From: Methanolinea sp.
GTDB taxonomy: Archaea; Halobacteriota; Methanomicrobia; Methanomicrobiales; Methanospirillaceae
Reading direction: 5' to 3'
DNA: 47,442 bases
NCBI GenBank assembly: GCA_030019395.1
Contig: JASEES010000002.1
Coordinates: 1 to 47,442 of the forward strand
Numbering within the stretch: the stretch's first letter is position 1; every line of letters begins with the position of its first letter. Made by a program: the position numbers and the translations under genes. This document shows positions 88-7,063 of the stretch, piece after piece. The notes under the pieces are model-generated. The model was not told where the DNA came from, did no database searches, and saw only the letters and a list, made by a program, of their open reading frames with translations.

Positions 88-792
88 TTATTTAATTTTT
101 GAATTCAACCACATCTCAACGATTCTTTTCGTCAAACTCTTTGCTTCGTTAATTTTCATCTCTTTATCCGGCTTTTTAAATTTCTGATGTGCGTGACGGG
201 CTTCTGTTTTCACGGCTTCATAGCTTTGAGCGGTCTGTTTTAATAGGTCAATGTCATCATAAAACTCTCCCTTCCTCAAAACGGGAGGAAAGTTATCTTC
301 CTGGACAACCTCGATAATCTTATAGAATCCATTCCACGATTTGAAATCATGATTCATTAAATCGAATACACGCCGGACTCTCTCGTCAGATTCCATTAAT
401 GGAATCCATTTTATCATTTGTTTGCCTGGAACAGATTCTTCAATGGTCCCATCTGCTTTGCAGACTGTTAATCGTGCCCGAACGCTTGATTTTACCGAAA
501 TGGTAGTTTCAAGAAAAATTGCCCTATTACCCCCCTCATCCTTATATTGAATTGCCCCTCGCGTTACGACATCCGATGAATCGAGGATGATTTGTTTCGT
601 CGCATTAATTGCTTTCAACAATTTATCTACAATCTCTTTGACAGCGTTAGAATCTTTACATCCCTCAAAGGATGAAGACTCAAGAATATACCCCTTCCCT
701 TCTCGGATGATCTGGAGATCCGATGAAGTGAATATTTTACTCAAATCCTCCAAATCGTCTTTATCTCCGTGAAGATCAACCTGCCAGTTCAT
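88..792 (-). CDS. Uncharacterised protein coupled to an hsdS remnant
   Basis: I do not recognise this 234-residue protein. It is soluble in appearance: no signal peptide or membrane segment, an acidic N-terminal half, and a lysine-rich C-terminal part (about residues 190-234) that looks helical. Its ATG overlaps the stop codon of the hsdS fragment in an ATGA arrangement, so it was probably translated together with a type I restriction specificity subunit. It is visibly richer in A and T than the genes to its right, which suggests transfer with a restriction-modification cassette. A role accessory to restriction or defence is inference from position only. The ORF is intact over its whole length. 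Confidence 0.6.
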   Translation of the reverse strand: MNWQVDLHGDKDDLEDLSKIFTSSDLQIIREGKGYILESSSFEGCKDSNAVKEIVDKLLKAINATKQIILDSSDVVTRGAIQYKDEGGNRAIFLETTISVKSSVRARLTVCKADGTIEESVPGKQMIKWIPLMESDERVRRVFDLMNHDFKSWNGFYKIIEVVQEDNFPPVLRKGEFYDDIDLLKQTAQSYEAVKTEARHAHQKFKKPDKEMKINEAKSLTKRIVEMWLNSKIK

Positions 793-1019
793 ATCTGTGT
801 CCTCTTACCGATTGTTTCCTTCTTAACCCGTTCCAACAGCACACTTGCCGGTTCATGCTCCTGCCCCTCCTTCCTCGCAAGTTCCGCCTCAGTGGGCACC
901 AGTTCCCCACAAAACGCTTTCGCCAGTATCGCCTGGGTCAACCGGTCCGCCCGCTCTTTTCCTGCAGTCACCTGTTGCTTGATGCGGTTAGCAAAGGCGA
1001 AAAGAGATTCGACTCGGTT
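789..1019 (-). pseudogene. hsdS: C-terminal remnant of type I restriction specificity subunit HsdS
   Basis: The last 76 codons of this frame match the usual C-terminus of HsdS: an R-V-E-S-L-F-A-F-A-N-R-I stretch, then A-D-R-L-T-Q-A-I-L-A-K-A-F, G-E-L-V-P and E-P-A-S-V-L-L-E-R. In intact proteins this is the end of the second conserved coiled-coil that follows the second DNA-recognition domain. Full-length HsdS has about 400-600 residues, so both recognition domains and the start are missing. The frame continues upstream to 1565, but that part is low-complexity and unlike HsdS. No hsdM or hsdR lies in the window. The fragment is most likely non-functional. Confidence 0.8.
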
Positions 1020-1316
1020 TGCACCCGGAAAATGCAAACGACAAGTATGGATATTCTTCCCCGGATCCGGAAATGGGGACACTGTGCCTGAGAGGTACCT
1101 CTTCACGGGCATCTTTGCACCATTTACAGGGAGCGCAGACCACGAATGCAGAACAGGATAGTCTCTCTCCCGGTGCGTGCGATCCTGCACATGGTGCAAA
1201 GGTTGCCGAGAAATATCGGGAAAAGGTTCCGATCGCGAATCCGGACGTGCAGGATAGTTCCCACGTTTGCACCAGCGGGGTGCAAACGTATGCAAACGTG
1301 CAAAAGTGGTGCAAAG
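1016..1316. repeat. Cluster of TGCAAA / TTTGCA motifs
   Basis: At least eight copies of TGCAAA or its complement lie within about 300 bases. They start near 1017, 1033, 1114, 1195, 1267, 1281, 1291, 1299 and 1310, and many are extended to GGTGCAAA or TGCAAACG. In sequence of this composition far fewer than one would be expected by chance. Both orientations occur and spacing is irregular, which argues against CRISPR. They could be operator sites, iterons or a recombination site. No gene here explains them. Confidence 0.7.
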
Positions 1317-1592
1317 ATGAGACAGCCGTTCCGCGTGGATCCGTTCCCGGTAGAACATGTGCACCGGGAAAAAGACGCAGCCTCCCGTATCCGGAGCATC
1401 AGGCCGGAATGTGCGACGGTTCTGCGCGAGGGTAGTGCATGGAATGGTGACGTCCGGGGAAGGCGGAGGGTGGAGGAGAGGACGCTGCCGGGGACCCTGC
1501 CGGCATTTCTTTTCTCCGGCATCCGGTTCGAAACCGGCAAAGGCTGTAAATCTCGTGGGACTCACCTTTTGATATGACGAAACGGGCGATTA
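1020..1592. other. Gene-free stretch between hsdS remnant and mmp8
   Basis: Several open frames cross this interval on both strands, but none shows recognisable protein sequence, a ribosome binding site or normal residue use. They are rich in Arg, Pro, Cys and Ser, as expected of chance frames in GC-rich DNA. The left half holds the TGCAAA cluster. The right half holds a small palindrome, CCGGTT-CGA-AACCGG, at 1523-1537. No RNA gene is recognised. Confidence 0.6.
1263..1289. repeat. Perfect 11-bp inverted repeat within the TGCAAA cluster
   Basis: The arms ACGTTTGCACC (1263-1273) and GGTGCAAACGT (1279-1289) are exact reverse complements around a five-base AGCGG spacer. A further TGCAAACGT follows at 1291-1299. 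The symmetry suits a dimeric DNA-binding protein or a small hairpin. It is not followed by a T-run, so it is not a typical terminator. Confidence 0.75.
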
Positions 1593-2456
1593 TCAGACAA
1601 GCGGCTGAGGTTCGACTCCATGCGTGGCCGGGAGCTGAGCATTGCTGATGACCACCCGGGCAGGTGCCTGGCGGACCTTTTCGAGGATCAGGTCCCTGCC
1701 TGCACGCGTCATCGCAAAGACAGGGATCGAGACCCCCGCCTGGAGCAATGCCCGTGGGCCTGCCACGTTCCTGACGTGGCGGGATGCACATGCGGTAATG
1801 ATATCTGCACTGGTCGCAAGGATGCGAGCTTCCTCTTCCGTTACCCCGGTCGTGTGGACTGCGATGACGAGGGTCCCGGGATATTCCTCCCGTACTGACC
1901 GGGCGTCCCCGGCGGATGCCACGGTGACACCGATACGGGAATAGCCCATCTCCCGGGCCATCCGGACACCCCCGGCCTGGTCGATGGAGGCAGCGGCAGG
2001 GTCACACACGGTTCCCCCTTTTTCCTGGATCCTCCGGATTACCTGTGGAATCGGCGAGGTGCGGACAAGCCCCGACATCCTCCCGCCGATGCCCTGGACG
2101 AGGGACGGTCGCGTGACGATGACAGTTCCTGCGCCGTCACACGCGATGACCACGCAATCGAGGAGGCCGGAAGAGAGCCCGCAGGAGAGGAGCTCCGATG
2201 CGCCGAAACCCACGTAGTCTCCATCGGCCTCGACCGCCCTGTCCGGCGTGCACATCCCGAACGCCCGTATCCTGTACTCCATGTTCTCCCCGATTGCCCC
2301 GGGAGTGATGACCGGGACCGGTTTTCCGAACCGGCGTGCGAGCGGGCATTCGCTGATCAGGGGTTCCCCCACGGAAATGACCTTTCCATTCCGGATCACG
2401 ACCCGGGCTTTCCCGATGGCCTCGATGACGTGCTCGTCACGTGAGGGTTCTGTCAT
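1593..2456 (-). CDS. Methanogenesis marker protein 8 (DUF2099 family)
   Basis: This 287-residue protein matches methanogenesis marker 8, a family found almost only in methanogens and relatives that carry methyl-coenzyme M reductase. Its biochemical function is not established. The N-terminus carries a short beta segment (V-V-I-R-N-G-K-V-I-S-V-G-E-P) followed by C-P-L-A-R-R-F, which the family shares. Cysteines near C-S-G-L-L-D-C-V-V-I-A-C-D and T-A-C-A-S-R-H could be ligands or catalytic, but this is inference. There is no signal peptide. It ends close to the gene-free scar on its downstream side, and its upstream neighbour ends 56 bases before its start. The family assignment is the clearest methanogen signature in the left half of the window. 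Confidence 0.85.
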   Translation of the reverse strand: MTEPSRDEHVIEAIGKARVVIRNGKVISVGEPLISECPLARRFGKPVPVITPGAIGENMEYRIRAFGMCTPDRAVEADGDYVGFGASELLSCGLSSGLLDCVVIACDGAGTVIVTRPSLVQGIGGRMSGLVRTSPIPQVIRRIQEKGGTVCDPAAASIDQAGGVRMAREMGYSRIGVTVASAGDARSVREEYPGTLVIAVHTTGVTEEEARILATSADIITACASRHVRNVAGPRALLQAGVSIPVFAMTRAGRDLILEKVRQAPARVVISNAQLPATHGVEPQPLV

Positions 2457-3748: not shown

Positions 3749-6700
3749 ATGGACGGGGAGATCTATTACAACCGTGGTATCGCGTACCACAAGAAGGGAC
3801 TTTTTGACGAAGCAATCGCCGATTACACCCGGGCCATCGAGATCAATCCTGACGATGCGGAGGCATACCATAACAGGGGTGTGGCAAAAGCAGGCAAGCA
3901 TGACTACCCGGGAGCAATTGAAGATTACAGCGCAGCCATCAGGATAAACCCCCATTTTTCCGAGGCTTTTTACAACCGCGGAGTTGCCTATTCCCTCCTG
4001 AACCGGCCGGAAAATGCAATATCCGATTTCACGAGTGCGGTCAACCTCGACACGGACTTTGTGGAGGCTTACTACAACAGGGGACTTGAGTATGCACGGA
4101 TCGGGGAATATGAACTTGCCATCGCTGACTTTTCGAAGGCAATCTCCCTAAACCCGTCCTACGCGGCGGCCTACAATAACAGGGGAGTTATCTATGCCCG
4201 CAGGGGGATGCACGAGAAGGCCATCGAGGACTATACACGGGCATTCGAACTCGATCCCTCGTTTTCCGAGGCCCTCTTCAACCGCGGAATCGAATTCTCC
4301 CGCCTGGGCCACTTCGAGGACGCGATCGCTGACTATACGAGGGCCCTTGAGATCACGCCGGAAAAAGCAGATATCCTCTACAACCGGGGCCTCGCATACG
4401 GCAAGCTCGGGCAGTCCGAGGCTGCGATTGCAGATTACCTCCAGTGCCTCGAGAAGAACCCCGCCTATGCGGAGGCCCACAACAATCTCGGGGTTGAATA
4501 CAGCCATCTCGGCCTCCTCGAGACTGCCCTTGACCATTATGCAAAGGCAATAGAGATCAACCCCTCGTTCGTGGAGGCCTATAACAACAGGGGGGTGCTC
4601 TTCAACCGCATGGGCAGGTTTGACGAAGCGATAGCTGAGTTTTCACGGGCACTCGAGATAATCTCGGAGGAGACGCAGGCAGAAGCAGTCACCGCGCAAC
4701 CGGAGGCCTCCCTTTCCGGGATGGCGGCAGAGACAGCTCCCGGCCAGGGTGTCCCCGGCGAGGAGGAAAAGGGAGAAACAACCGTTCCCCCGGTGGAAGA
4801 ACTGGTGGAAGACCCTGCAATCCGGCAGCTGACCGATGAGATAAACCGGTCTCCCGATGACCCCGAACTCTACAACCGGAGGGGTGTCGAATACTCAAGG
4901 CTCGGGCAGTCCGAAAAGGCAATCGAGGATTTTACACGCGCCATCGATATCGATCCCGGTTACATCGAGGCATATTTCAACAGGGGCAACGAGTATGACC
5001 GGCTCGGAATGGTGGACGAAGCGATCGCTGATTATACCCACGCCCTGAAGATCAACCCCAAGTTTGCCGAGGCGTGTTTTGCCCGTGGTATCGAGTACCA
5101 GAAAGCCAGCCTCTCTGACAGGGCCATATCCGAGTTTACGAAGGCACTCGAGATCCGGCCTGCATACCCGGATGCGCTCTACCAGAGGGGATGCGAATTT
5201 GCAAAAATAGGCCTCTCCGACATGGCTGTCAGGGACTTTTCGCGGGCACTGGAGATACGGGGCCAGTTTTTCGAGGCCCTCGTCGCACGTGCCGAACAGT
5301 ATTCCCGGAAGGGCCTTTCCGAGCGTGCAACAGAGGACCTGACAGCGGCACTTGCCCTCGAGCCCACCAGTGCCGGGCTGTACGTCCGGAGAGGTATCGA
5401 GCAGTCCCGTTCCGGGAAGATAGAGGAGGCTCTTGCCGATTTTTCGAAGGCAATCGGGATGGAGCCCTCGAACGCGGATGCATACTTCCAGAGAGCCCTG
5501 ATCCTGCAGAAACAGGGTCGCTTCGAGGAGTCTGCAAGCGACATCTCCCGCGTCATCGAGTTACGCCCTGCGGATGCACAGGCATACCTTATCCGCGGGC
5601 GCCAGAATTCCGAACTGGGAAATTCATCCGAGGCAATCGCCGATTTTTCCCGTGCCCTGGAGATCGTCCCGCGGTTGTTCGATGCGTACATCGGGAGGGG
5701 GCAGGAGAGGAGCAGGTGCGGACAGGCAGAAAAGGCAGTAGAGGACTATTCCAATGCAATACGCCTCAATGGCCGCTCCGTTGAAGCGCTCACTGCGAGG
5801 GCGACAGAGTACAGCCGGCTGGGGAGGTACGAGGATGCTGTCGAAGACCTTTCCCGGGCACTTGAACAGGCTCCGGGGGACGTAAGCATCCTCCTTGCTC
5901 GCGGCCTGCTCTACGAACGGCTGGGTATGATCGATGAGGCAATTGCCGATTACTCGAAGGTCATCGAGATCGACCCCGGTCATGAAAAGGCGTACATCAA
6001 CCGCGGCAACCTCCTGGCAGGCAGGGGCCTCTCATCCGAGGCAATTGCCGACTTTTCCCGGGTTATCGAGATCAACCCCGGTAACGCGGTTGCTTTCTAT
6101 AACAGGGGAATCGAGTACGGCGAGAGGGGCATGCTCGACGAGGCTATCAAGGACCTTGGGAAAGCAGTGATGCTCCGCCCTGACCTTGCAGAGGCCTATT
6201 ACAACAGGGGCGTTGCCTACCACAAGAAGGGGATGCTGGAGGAAGCAATAGCCGATTATAACCGGGCCCTCGAGCTGAGCCCTGATAACGAGAAGGCCTA
6301 CAATAACCGTGGGAATGCGCATGCAGCCCTCGGGATGTACGACGAGGCGATAGAGGATTTCTCGCGTGCCATCGAGATCAACCCCGACAACCCGACGGCG
6401 TATTACAACCGGGGGATCGAGTACGGCAAGAAGGGATTGATAGAAAAGGCAATGGAGGATTTTTCACGCGCGATAGCCATCAAGCCTGACCTTGCCGAGG
6501 CCTATTACAACCGTGGTGTTGCCTACCAGAGGGTCGAGAGGTACGAGGAAGCGATCGCCGACTACTCGAGGGCCATCCAGATCTCCCCCGCCAACGAAAA
6601 AGCATACAATAACCGTGGGAATGCGCATGCAGCCCTCGGGATGTACAACGAGGCCATCTCGGACTTCTCGCGTGCCATCGAGATCAACCCCGACAACCCG

Positions 6701-7063
6701 ACGGCGTATTACAACCGGGGGATCGAGTACGGCAAGAAGGGGTTCTTCGATGAAGCCATTGCGGACTTCTCGAAGGCTGTCGGGCTCCGTCCGGACCTCG
6801 CCGAGGCATACTATAACATGGGCAATATCTATTACAACAGGAACATGTGCAGGGAAGCGATTCGGGAATTTGACCGGGCCCTCGGGGTAAAACCCGGTTA
6901 TGCACGGGCATTCCTGAACAAGGCACTCGCGTACGAGAAACTGTCAATGACAGAGGAAGCCATCGCGGCATACGAGGGTTTCCTGAAATTTGCCCGGAAT
7001 GAATCGAAGGAACTCGTCGATTTCGTCTCCCAGAGGCTGCGGGACCTCTCGCTGTCCGTGTGA
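3749..7063 (+). CDS. Giant tetratricopeptide-repeat protein with 30 TPRs
   Basis: The 1104-residue product is almost entirely TPRs of exactly 34 residues with the pattern A-Y-x-N-R-G-x-x-Y-x-x-x-G, E-A-I-x-D-(FY)-(ST)-(RK)-A-(IL)-E-(IL)-x-P. I count nine repeats at residues 4-309, a 63-residue Glu/Pro-rich linker at 310-372, then 21 repeats at 373-1086 and an 18-residue tail. There is no signal peptide or membrane helix, so it is probably cytoplasmic. TPR arrays are protein-protein scaffolds, and the partner is unknown. Two 3-TPR units near the end are almost identical at DNA level, showing recent internal duplication. Its neighbours on both sides encode surface proteins, so a role in envelope or pilus assembly is possible but not shown. 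Confidence 0.9.
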   Translation: MDGEIYYNRGIAYHKKGLFDEAIADYTRAIEINPDDAEAYHNRGVAKAGKHDYPGAIEDYSAAIRINPHFSEAFYNRGVAYSLLNRPENAISDFTSAVNLDTDFVEAYYNRGLEYARIGEYELAIADFSKAISLNPSYAAAYNNRGVIYARRGMHEKAIEDYTRAFELDPSFSEALFNRGIEFSRLGHFEDAIADYTRALEITPEKADILYNRGLAYGKLGQSEAAIADYLQCLEKNPAYAEAHNNLGVEYSHLGLLETALDHYAKAIEINPSFVEAYNNRGVLFNRMGRFDEAIAEFSRALEIISEETQAEAVTAQPEASLSGMAAETAPGQGVPGEEEKGETTVPPVEELVEDPAIRQLTDEINRSPDDPELYNRRGVEYSRLGQSEKAIEDFTRAIDIDPGYIEAYFNRGNEYDRLGMVDEAIADYTHALKINPKFAEACFARGIEYQKASLSDRAISEFTKALEIRPAYPDALYQRGCEFAKIGLSDMAVRDFSRALEIRGQFFEALVARAEQYSRKGLSERATEDLTAALALEPTSAGLYVRRGIEQSRSGKIEEALADFSKAIGMEPSNADAYFQRALILQKQGRFEESASDISRVIELRPADAQAYLIRGRQNSELGNSSEAIADFSRALEIVPRLFDAYIGRGQERSRCGQAEKAVEDYSNAIRLNGRSVEALTARATEYSRLGRYEDAVEDLSRALEQAPGDVSILLARGLLYERLGMIDEAIADYSKVIEIDPGHEKAYINRGNLLAGRGLSSEAIADFSRVIEINPGNAVAFYNRGIEYGERGMLDEAIKDLGKAVMLRPDLAEAYYNRGVAYHKKGMLEEAIADYNRALELSPDNEKAYNNRGNAHAALGMYDEAIEDFSRAIEINPDNPTAYYNRGIEYGKKGLIEKAMEDFSRAIAIKPDLAEAYYNRGVAYQRVERYEEAIADYSRAIQISPANEKAYNNRGNAHAALGMYNEAISDFSRAIEINPDNPTAYYNRGIEYGKKGFFDEAIADFSKAVGLRPDLAEAYYNMGNIYYNRNMCREAIREFDRALGVKPGYARAFLNKALAYEKLSMTEEAIAAYEGFLKFARNESKELVDFVSQRLRDLSLSV
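6301..6741 (+). repeat. 306-base period duplication inside the TPR gene
   Basis: Bases 6301-6435 recur at 6607-6741 with about six mismatches by eye, at an offset of exactly 306 bases (three TPRs of 102 bases). Other TPR codons in the gene differ much more. The near-identity extends to synonymous positions, so it reflects a recent duplication or gene conversion and not protein-level constraint alone. Confidence 0.85.

What the first reader, a model, noticed from the sequence alone, without database searches (positions are those of the whole stretch)
1016..1316. Dense cluster of TGCAAA motifs in both orientations
Eight or more copies within 300 bases, far above chance in this GC-rich DNA, in a place without a gene. 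The extended forms GGTGCAAA and TGCAAACG recur. It could bind a regulator, act as an iteron array or be part of a mobile element.
Basis: seen in the sequence. Interest (0 to 1): 0.6.

Follow-up and report, generated by a model that had tools for sequence, protein, structure and literature searches.

The report
Fossil replication-origin array of archaeal element
The cluster of short repeats is a broken remnant of a mobile element in a methane-producing archaeon, and its intact relatives suggest that such elements keep their replication start site inside the gene for their own replication enzyme, with a fixed spacing but a repeat "password" that changes from element to element.

Summary
In detail: nine TGCAAA copies lie in 1018-1315, against 0.2 expected from the rest of the window. 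The stretch is 75% identical to C45:3963-4305 of the same genome, inside the 3' part of an intact 939-aa gene. That gene encodes an AEP primase, an MCM-like helicase, a winged helix, a disordered linker and Cys pairs. The window holds only the linker, frameshifted and abutting an HsdS tail, probably left by an element at a tRNA-Leu.

Homologues across Methanomicrobiales carry their own repeat in the same linker DNA: TGCTGAAA, TGCGGAAGT, TGCTGTAAA, TGCAGGCAA, GGTGCAAA and others, in all reading frames and on both strands. In 48 of 77 linkers they exceed synonymous shuffles. In 22 of 43, positions and orientations follow one dyad-symmetric plan although the motif differs. Most genes of the genus also have an AT-rich island there. 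Best reading: a replication origin inside the initiator gene, as in lambda O. Binding and origin activity are inferred. The elements resemble arCOG07809 elements (PMC4158269); I found no description of their origin.

The parts
1012..1352 (+). Relic of the 3' linker part of a primase/MCM-like helicase gene (aa ~771-876 of the C45 protein), frameshifted near 1276 and cut off at both ends
   Evidence: 75% DNA identity to G000:C45:3963-4305; 47% aa identity over aa 771-876, E 2e-13; frame change seen in translations
1018..1023 (-). iteron-like site (GGTGCAAAC); last minus site of the left cluster, the outer ones are lost
   Evidence: layout compared
1033..1038 (+). iteron-like site (ATGCAAACG), plus site of the left cluster
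1114..1119 (-). central site 1 (TGGTGCAAA), 81 bp from the previous
1195..1200 (+). central site 2 (TGGTGCAAA), 81 bp from the previous
1266..1271 (-). right-cluster minus site (TGGTGCAAACG), 71 bp from the previous
1281..1315 (+). right cluster of four plus sites at 1281, 1291, 1299, 1310 (8-11 bp apart)
792..1016 (-). C-terminal fragment of a type I restriction specificity subunit (HsdS), abutting the relic
   Evidence: EcoKI HsdS 2y7c E 6e-8; PADLOC Specificity_I E 3e-15
1593..2456 (-). DUF2099 gene, the chromosomal flank; in G010 the relic sits between this gene and tRNA-Leu(GAG), in G011 the site is empty
   Evidence: PF09872 E 1e-104

Best explanation
The cluster is the remnant of an in-gene replication origin of an integrated archaeal element. 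In intact elements one gene encodes an AEP primase, an MCM-like AAA+ helicase, a winged helix, a long disordered linker and C-terminal Cys pairs. The DNA of the linker carries about 6-14 copies of an 8-9 bp site, in the commonest form in a dyad-symmetric plan: up to four minus sites about one helical turn apart plus one plus site, ~87 bp (usually with an AT-rich island), a minus site, ~78 bp, a plus site, ~75 bp, then a minus site and a cluster of plus sites. Proposed mechanism: the protein binds these sites through its winged helix, wraps the DNA, melts the AT-rich gap, loads its own helicase and makes primers. Elements differ in site sequence, so each initiator would act mainly on its own class of origin. 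In the window the element has decayed and left a frameshifted piece with nine sites. Shown: relic status, shared sequence, DNA-level repeats, conserved layout. Inferred: binding by the protein, origin activity, origin-specific pairing.
For: Same-genome copy inside an intact ORF. Homologues with own repeats at the same place. Repeats exceed synonymous shuffles in 48/77 linkers at p<=0.01, in all frames and on both strands. Layout quadruple in 22/43 linkers against 0.12 expected for random placement (sites tabulated); further weak linkers (L016, L018, L077, L082) show it when one mismatch is allowed. AT-rich island (45-bp AT 0.80-0.87, gene mean 0.32-0.40) in 11/16 genes of the genus. Linker aa 753-883 predicted disordered, winged-helix recognition helix 680-688. 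N-terminal AEP fold, MCM-like AAA+ (Z 21). Helicase part 23-24% identical to a putative plasmid Rep. Integrase in 20 loci, Orc1 in 16. Site bases 95% conserved against 70% between them. Precedent: lambda ori inside O, iterons plus AT-rich DNA (PMC4488673; PMC7466680); repABC oriV inside repC (PMC3155836).
Against: No binding or replication data. 23 of 77 linkers show no octamer array at p<=0.05, including most of the closest relatives of the C45 protein (L043, L044, L047, L048). The C45 gene has no strong AT-rich island (45-bp maximum 0.56). The spacing limits were set after seeing the data, and related genes are not independent. Several Methanoculleus arrays have other spacings. No circular contig was found.
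Confidence: 0.72

Rival explanations
1. The array is a binding platform for the element-linked Orc1/Cdc6 protein rather than for the primase-helicase: an ORB-like origin that happens to sit in the neighbouring gene.
For: Orc1/Cdc6 genes lie within 6 kb in 16 loci, including C45:1078-2202. Archaeal Orc1 sites commonly flank AT-rich DNA in inverted orientation (own knowledge).
Against: Many loci with strong arrays show no Orc1 within the fetched flanks and instead carry an integrase and an Hjc-like nuclease. The 3' end of the motif varies together with residue 680 of the primase-helicase winged helix, though relatedness confounds this.
Confidence: 0.12
2. The array is a partition/centromere, incompatibility or autoregulatory site of the element rather than its origin.
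For: Clustered sites at helical spacing are also typical of centromere-like and operator DNA (own knowledge); location alone does not decide.
Against: AT-rich island in a fixed gap, location in an initiator-type gene and dyad symmetry fit an origin better; no Par-like gene stood out among conserved neighbours.
Confidence: 0.1
3. The repeats are by-products of repeated peptides or codon bias in a low-complexity linker.
For: The linker is low-complexity and predicted disordered; one gene (L063) has a tandem CATCATCC run in one frame only.
Against: Copies occur in all three frames and both orientations, and exceed synonymous shuffles in 48/77 linkers; the layout persists while the motif changes.
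Confidence: 0.03
4. The window array is an active chromosomal site (regulator operator or chromosomal origin) unrelated to mobile elements.
For: Intergenic position; sites better conserved than their surroundings in two species (95% against 70%).
Against: The flanks translate as the linker of the mobile-element gene; the site is empty in G011; the main Orc1 gene is on another contig (C1).
Confidence: 0.03

Closest known systems
Lambdoid phage origin inside the O gene
   Same: Iterons plus an AT-rich stretch lie in the coding sequence of the initiator, as described in PMC4488673 and PMC7466680.
   Different: Lambda has four 19-bp iterons on one side of the AT-rich DNA; here short sites lie in a dyad-symmetric ~330-bp plan. 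The proteins show no match; lambda O is not a primase or helicase.
arCOG07809 / Mpal_2033 integrated elements (PMC4158269)
   Same: Primase, helicase, HTH and Zn-finger domains in one protein, integrases, an HJR nuclease nearby, small integrated elements of archaea. The present family is probably this one.
   Different: That paper names the helicase Superfamily I; here the fold is MCM-like AAA+. A search of its text for iteron or origin of replication gave nothing.
repABC plasmid oriV inside repC
   Same: Origin with AT-rich DNA within the initiator gene (PMC3155836).
   Different: No iterons were found in repC by its authors; unrelated hosts; the proteins were not compared here.
PrimPol-PV1 primases of mobile elements (PMC5862659)
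   Same: AEP domain followed by diverse helicases and a WH domain proposed to recognise the origin.
   Different: That work describes proteins, not in-gene arrays; assignment to one of its families by motif IV was not tested here.
Phage P4 alpha protein and its GGTGAACA-type iterons
   Same: From memory only: one protein with primase, helicase and origin-binding activity, and octamer iterons in both orientations.
   Different: From memory: P4 iterons lie outside the alpha gene, in ori1 and crr; not compared here.

Membership tests
arCOG07809 / Mpal_2033-type integrated elements | AEP prim-pol domain at the N-terminus | tested here: met
   Model of aa 1-335 (pLDDT 85) matches RepB' 3h20 E 2e-5 and CRISPR-associated Prim-Pol, probability 1.00; TM-scores modest (0.38-0.57)
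arCOG07809 / Mpal_2033-type integrated elements | Helicase, HTH and Zn-finger domains in the same protein | tested here: met
   MCM-like AAA+ Z 21.4 over 272 residues; helix-turn-helix with wing at 669-732 in the model; conserved CxxC pairs at 901/904 and 921/924. The paper calls the helicase Superfamily I
arCOG07809 / Mpal_2033-type integrated elements | Integrase and integration site in some members | tested here: met
   Phage_integrase E 3e-25 next to tRNA-Leu in L080; integrases in 20 loci
arCOG07809 / Mpal_2033-type integrated elements | Sequence membership in arCOG07809 | not tested
   No arCOG library or named Mpal_2033 sequence was used
Origin inside the initiator gene (lambda-O-like organisation) | Repeated sites in the coding sequence of the replication gene | tested here: met
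Origin inside the initiator gene (lambda-O-like organisation) | AT-rich stretch beside the repeats | tested here: met
   11 of 16 genes in the genus have a 45-bp AT maximum of 0.80-0.87; not so in the C45 gene (0.56)
Origin inside the initiator gene (lambda-O-like organisation) | Initiator binds the repeats and replication starts there | not testable with these tools
   Needs EMSA/footprint and origin mapping
Lambdoid O protein family | Sequence match to phage O initiators | tested here: not met
   No PHROGs family matched the 939-aa protein at E<=0.1
Archaeal ORB origin bound by Orc1/Cdc6 | Sites recognised by a neighbouring Orc1 | tested here: inconclusive
   Orc1 present near 16 loci but not seen near many other arrays; binding untested

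The most novel reading that the evidence does not exclude
The relic array in the window, and its counterpart in a sister species, has been kept by selection after the gene died: an origin decoy on the chromosome that titrates the initiator of related elements (the intact C45 gene in the same genome uses the same GGTGCAAA sites) and so protects the host, as plasmid-borne ectopic lambda origins do in the laboratory (PMC4488673).
Probability: 0.1. Interest if true: 0.75.

Novelty: new variant of a known kind. Interest (0 to 1): 0.55.

Why it matters
If right, it gives a predicted origin for a widespread element family of methanogens whose replication start has not been described in the papers I could search. 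It also offers a natural series of more than ten initiator/site pairs in which the geometry stays fixed and the recognition sequence changes, which makes the evolution of origin specificity directly testable. A self-contained gene with initiator, helicase, primase and origin could also serve as a basis for vectors in these methanogens.

Tried and rejected
Transposon or MITE: only two other DNA matches in 13 genomes of the genus, one within a coding gene, so not a dispersed repeat. Peptide-repeat artefact: rejected by frames, strands and synonymous shuffles. Shared deletion proving that both relics died in a common ancestor: suspected from the alignment, dropped because the two relics align differently at that place. 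Motif exclusion between elements of one genome as proof of incompatibility: not claimed, some genomes hold two elements with the same motif. Specificity residues: the mutual-information scan is confounded by linker columns that encode the sites; outside the linker the helix at 665-695 is enriched only weakly (hypergeometric p 0.03-0.15). Terminal overlaps that would show circular contigs: none. Array in the distant Methanothermobacter plasmid pMTBMA4: no comparable octamer cluster in its rep gene. Virus collections: one distant match in viral contigs, and only primase-domain matches in two phage records. An att duplication around the G010 relic was sought and not seen.

Full report
1. Observation. 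TGCAAA occurs nine times in 1018-1315, six on the plus and three on the minus strand. From the rest of the window 0.2 copies would be expected, P about 1e-12, and no other 300-bp stretch has more than three. GGTGCAAA is found 103 times in the 1.8-Mb genome, but among the listed places the only dense clusters are this one and C45:4000-4318.

2. What it descends from. A DNA search of the own genome returned one strong second match, C45:3963-4305, at 75% identity over 340 bp. There the sequence lies inside an open reading frame of 939 aa (L009:3795-6614, minus strand). Translated search gives the window stretch as aa 771-876 of that protein at 47% identity, E 2e-13. In the window the reading frame changes near 1276 and the rest of the gene is missing. 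To the left it abuts the C-terminal 75 aa of an HsdS specificity subunit. A sister genome, G010, has a similar relic next to the same DUF2099 gene and with tRNA-Leu(GAG) on the other side. Genome G011 has tRNA-Leu(GAG) directly beside the DUF2099 gene and no TGCAAA cluster, i.e. an empty site. No tRNA is found in the window, which starts at the contig end, so the insertion point in this genome is inferred.

3. The gene. Eleven of 13 genomes of the genus hold matches, with 16 full-length genes of 915-1078 codons. In named genomes 252 relatives were counted and 80 fetched; those I read carry names of Methanomicrobiales such as Methanoculleus, Methanolinea, Methanoregula, Methanogenium, Methanofollis and Methanospirillum, or unnamed Euryarchaeota. 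The N-terminal domain has the AEP primase fold (model, matches RepB' and Prim-Pol domains). The centre is an MCM-like AAA+ domain (Z 21.4, rmsd 3.5 A over 272 residues). A winged helix follows (helices 669-676 and 680-688, strands to 732), then residues 753-883 with pLDDT below 50 (mostly 24-42), then conserved CxxC pairs. Sequence libraries know almost nothing of this protein. Its helicase part is 23-24% identical to a putative Rep of Methanothermobacter-type plasmids. Neighbours include tyrosine integrases, Orc1/Cdc6, Hjc-like and other nucleases, so these are integrated mobile elements. The description of arCOG07809 elements (PMC4158269) fits them, although I did not test arCOG membership by sequence.

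4. The array in intact relatives. Most genes carry their own repeated octamer in the DNA of the disordered linker. Copies lie in all three frames and on both strands. Compared with 300 synonymous shuffles of the same linker, 48 of 77 are at p<=0.01, and 53 of 77 exceed every window of equal length in the rest of the same gene. The motifs are variants of a pattern like TGNTGNAAR: TGCTGAAA, TGCTGTAAA, TGCTGCAA, TGTTGCAAA, TGCTGTCA, TGCAGGCAA, TGCGGAAGT, TGCTGAAGG, TCCTGCAAC, GGTGCAAA.

5. The layout. Although the motif changes, the positions hardly do: up to four minus sites 8-11 bp apart, one plus site, about 87 bp, a minus site, about 78 bp, a plus site, about 75 bp, a minus site, then plus sites 10-21 bp apart. 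Read from the other strand this order is the same, so it is dyad-symmetric. The quadruple with these gaps is found in 22 of 43 linkers; random placement predicts 0.12. The limits were chosen after looking, and genes share ancestry, so the figure measures persistence of the plan through motif change rather than independent origins. The window relic keeps this plan (gaps 81, 81, 71; C45 has 86, 79, 73) without the outermost left sites, which would lie beyond the HsdS junction.

6. AT-rich island. In 11 of 16 genes of the genus a 45-bp stretch of 80-87% AT lies in or near the ~87-bp gap, in genes that average 32-40% AT. The C45 gene, closest to the window, lacks it (maximum 56%).

7. Conservation of sites. 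Among window relic, G010 relic and C45 gene, bases in sites defined by the third sequence agree in 95%, other bases in 70% (Fisher p 1e-5 for window against G010). Fourfold sites of the neighbouring DUF2099 gene agree in 77%. The relics may have been active until recently, so this does not prove that the relic array still has a function.

8. Specificity. Outside the linker, residues of the winged-helix recognition helix are among those that vary with the motif: position 680 is Asn or Ser in ten genes whose sites end in AG, GG, GA, GT or AC at positions 8-9, and mostly Tyr in the others. Relatedness confounds this and the enrichment of the helix as a whole is weak (p 0.03-0.15), so it is a lead.

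9. Mechanism. I infer that the protein binds its sites through the winged helix, forms a wrapped complex across the dyad, melts the AT-rich gap, and loads its own helicase and primase. Origins inside initiator genes are known in lambdoid phages (PMC4488673, PMC7466680) and repABC plasmids (PMC3155836), so the arrangement is a known kind; the primase-MCM initiator, the dyad plan and its persistence through motif change are what I did not find described. Paper searches covered only open-access full texts.

10. Verdict. The window feature is an ordinary fossil in itself. Its relatives reveal a probable in-gene origin family worth testing.

Noticed in passing
L069 and L070 (Methanoculleus), linker: The right half of the array is repeated in tandem with a 153-bp (51-codon) period, three more times in L069 and two in L070, so the origin block seems to expand in frame.
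   Followed up: no
L054, L057, L059, L062, L081, L095, L096, L100, L103, L106, L112: A conserved ~180-220 aa protein starting MADFVQ.. occurs near the primase-helicase gene; members scanned had no match in Pfam or PHROGs; possible element-encoded structural or secreted protein.
   Followed up: partly
gap between left cluster and central sites, e.g. L024, L035, L100, L113, L121: Short palindromes such as GTACATATATATGTAC or CACACATGTGTG lie in the AT-rich gap of several arrays.
   Followed up: no
window 88-792 (-): 234-aa ORF without a family match, between the contig end and the HsdS fragment.
   Followed up: no
window 3749-7063 (+): 1104-aa ORF made of many tetratricopeptide-like repeats.
   Followed up: no
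whole window: TGCAAA is more than twice as frequent as dinucleotide shuffles predict even outside the cluster (31 against 12.7).
   Followed up: no
G000: C45, C3, C29: Three intact primase-helicase genes in one genome carry three different site motifs: GGTGCAAA, TGCGGAAGT and TGCTGAAG.
   Followed up: partly
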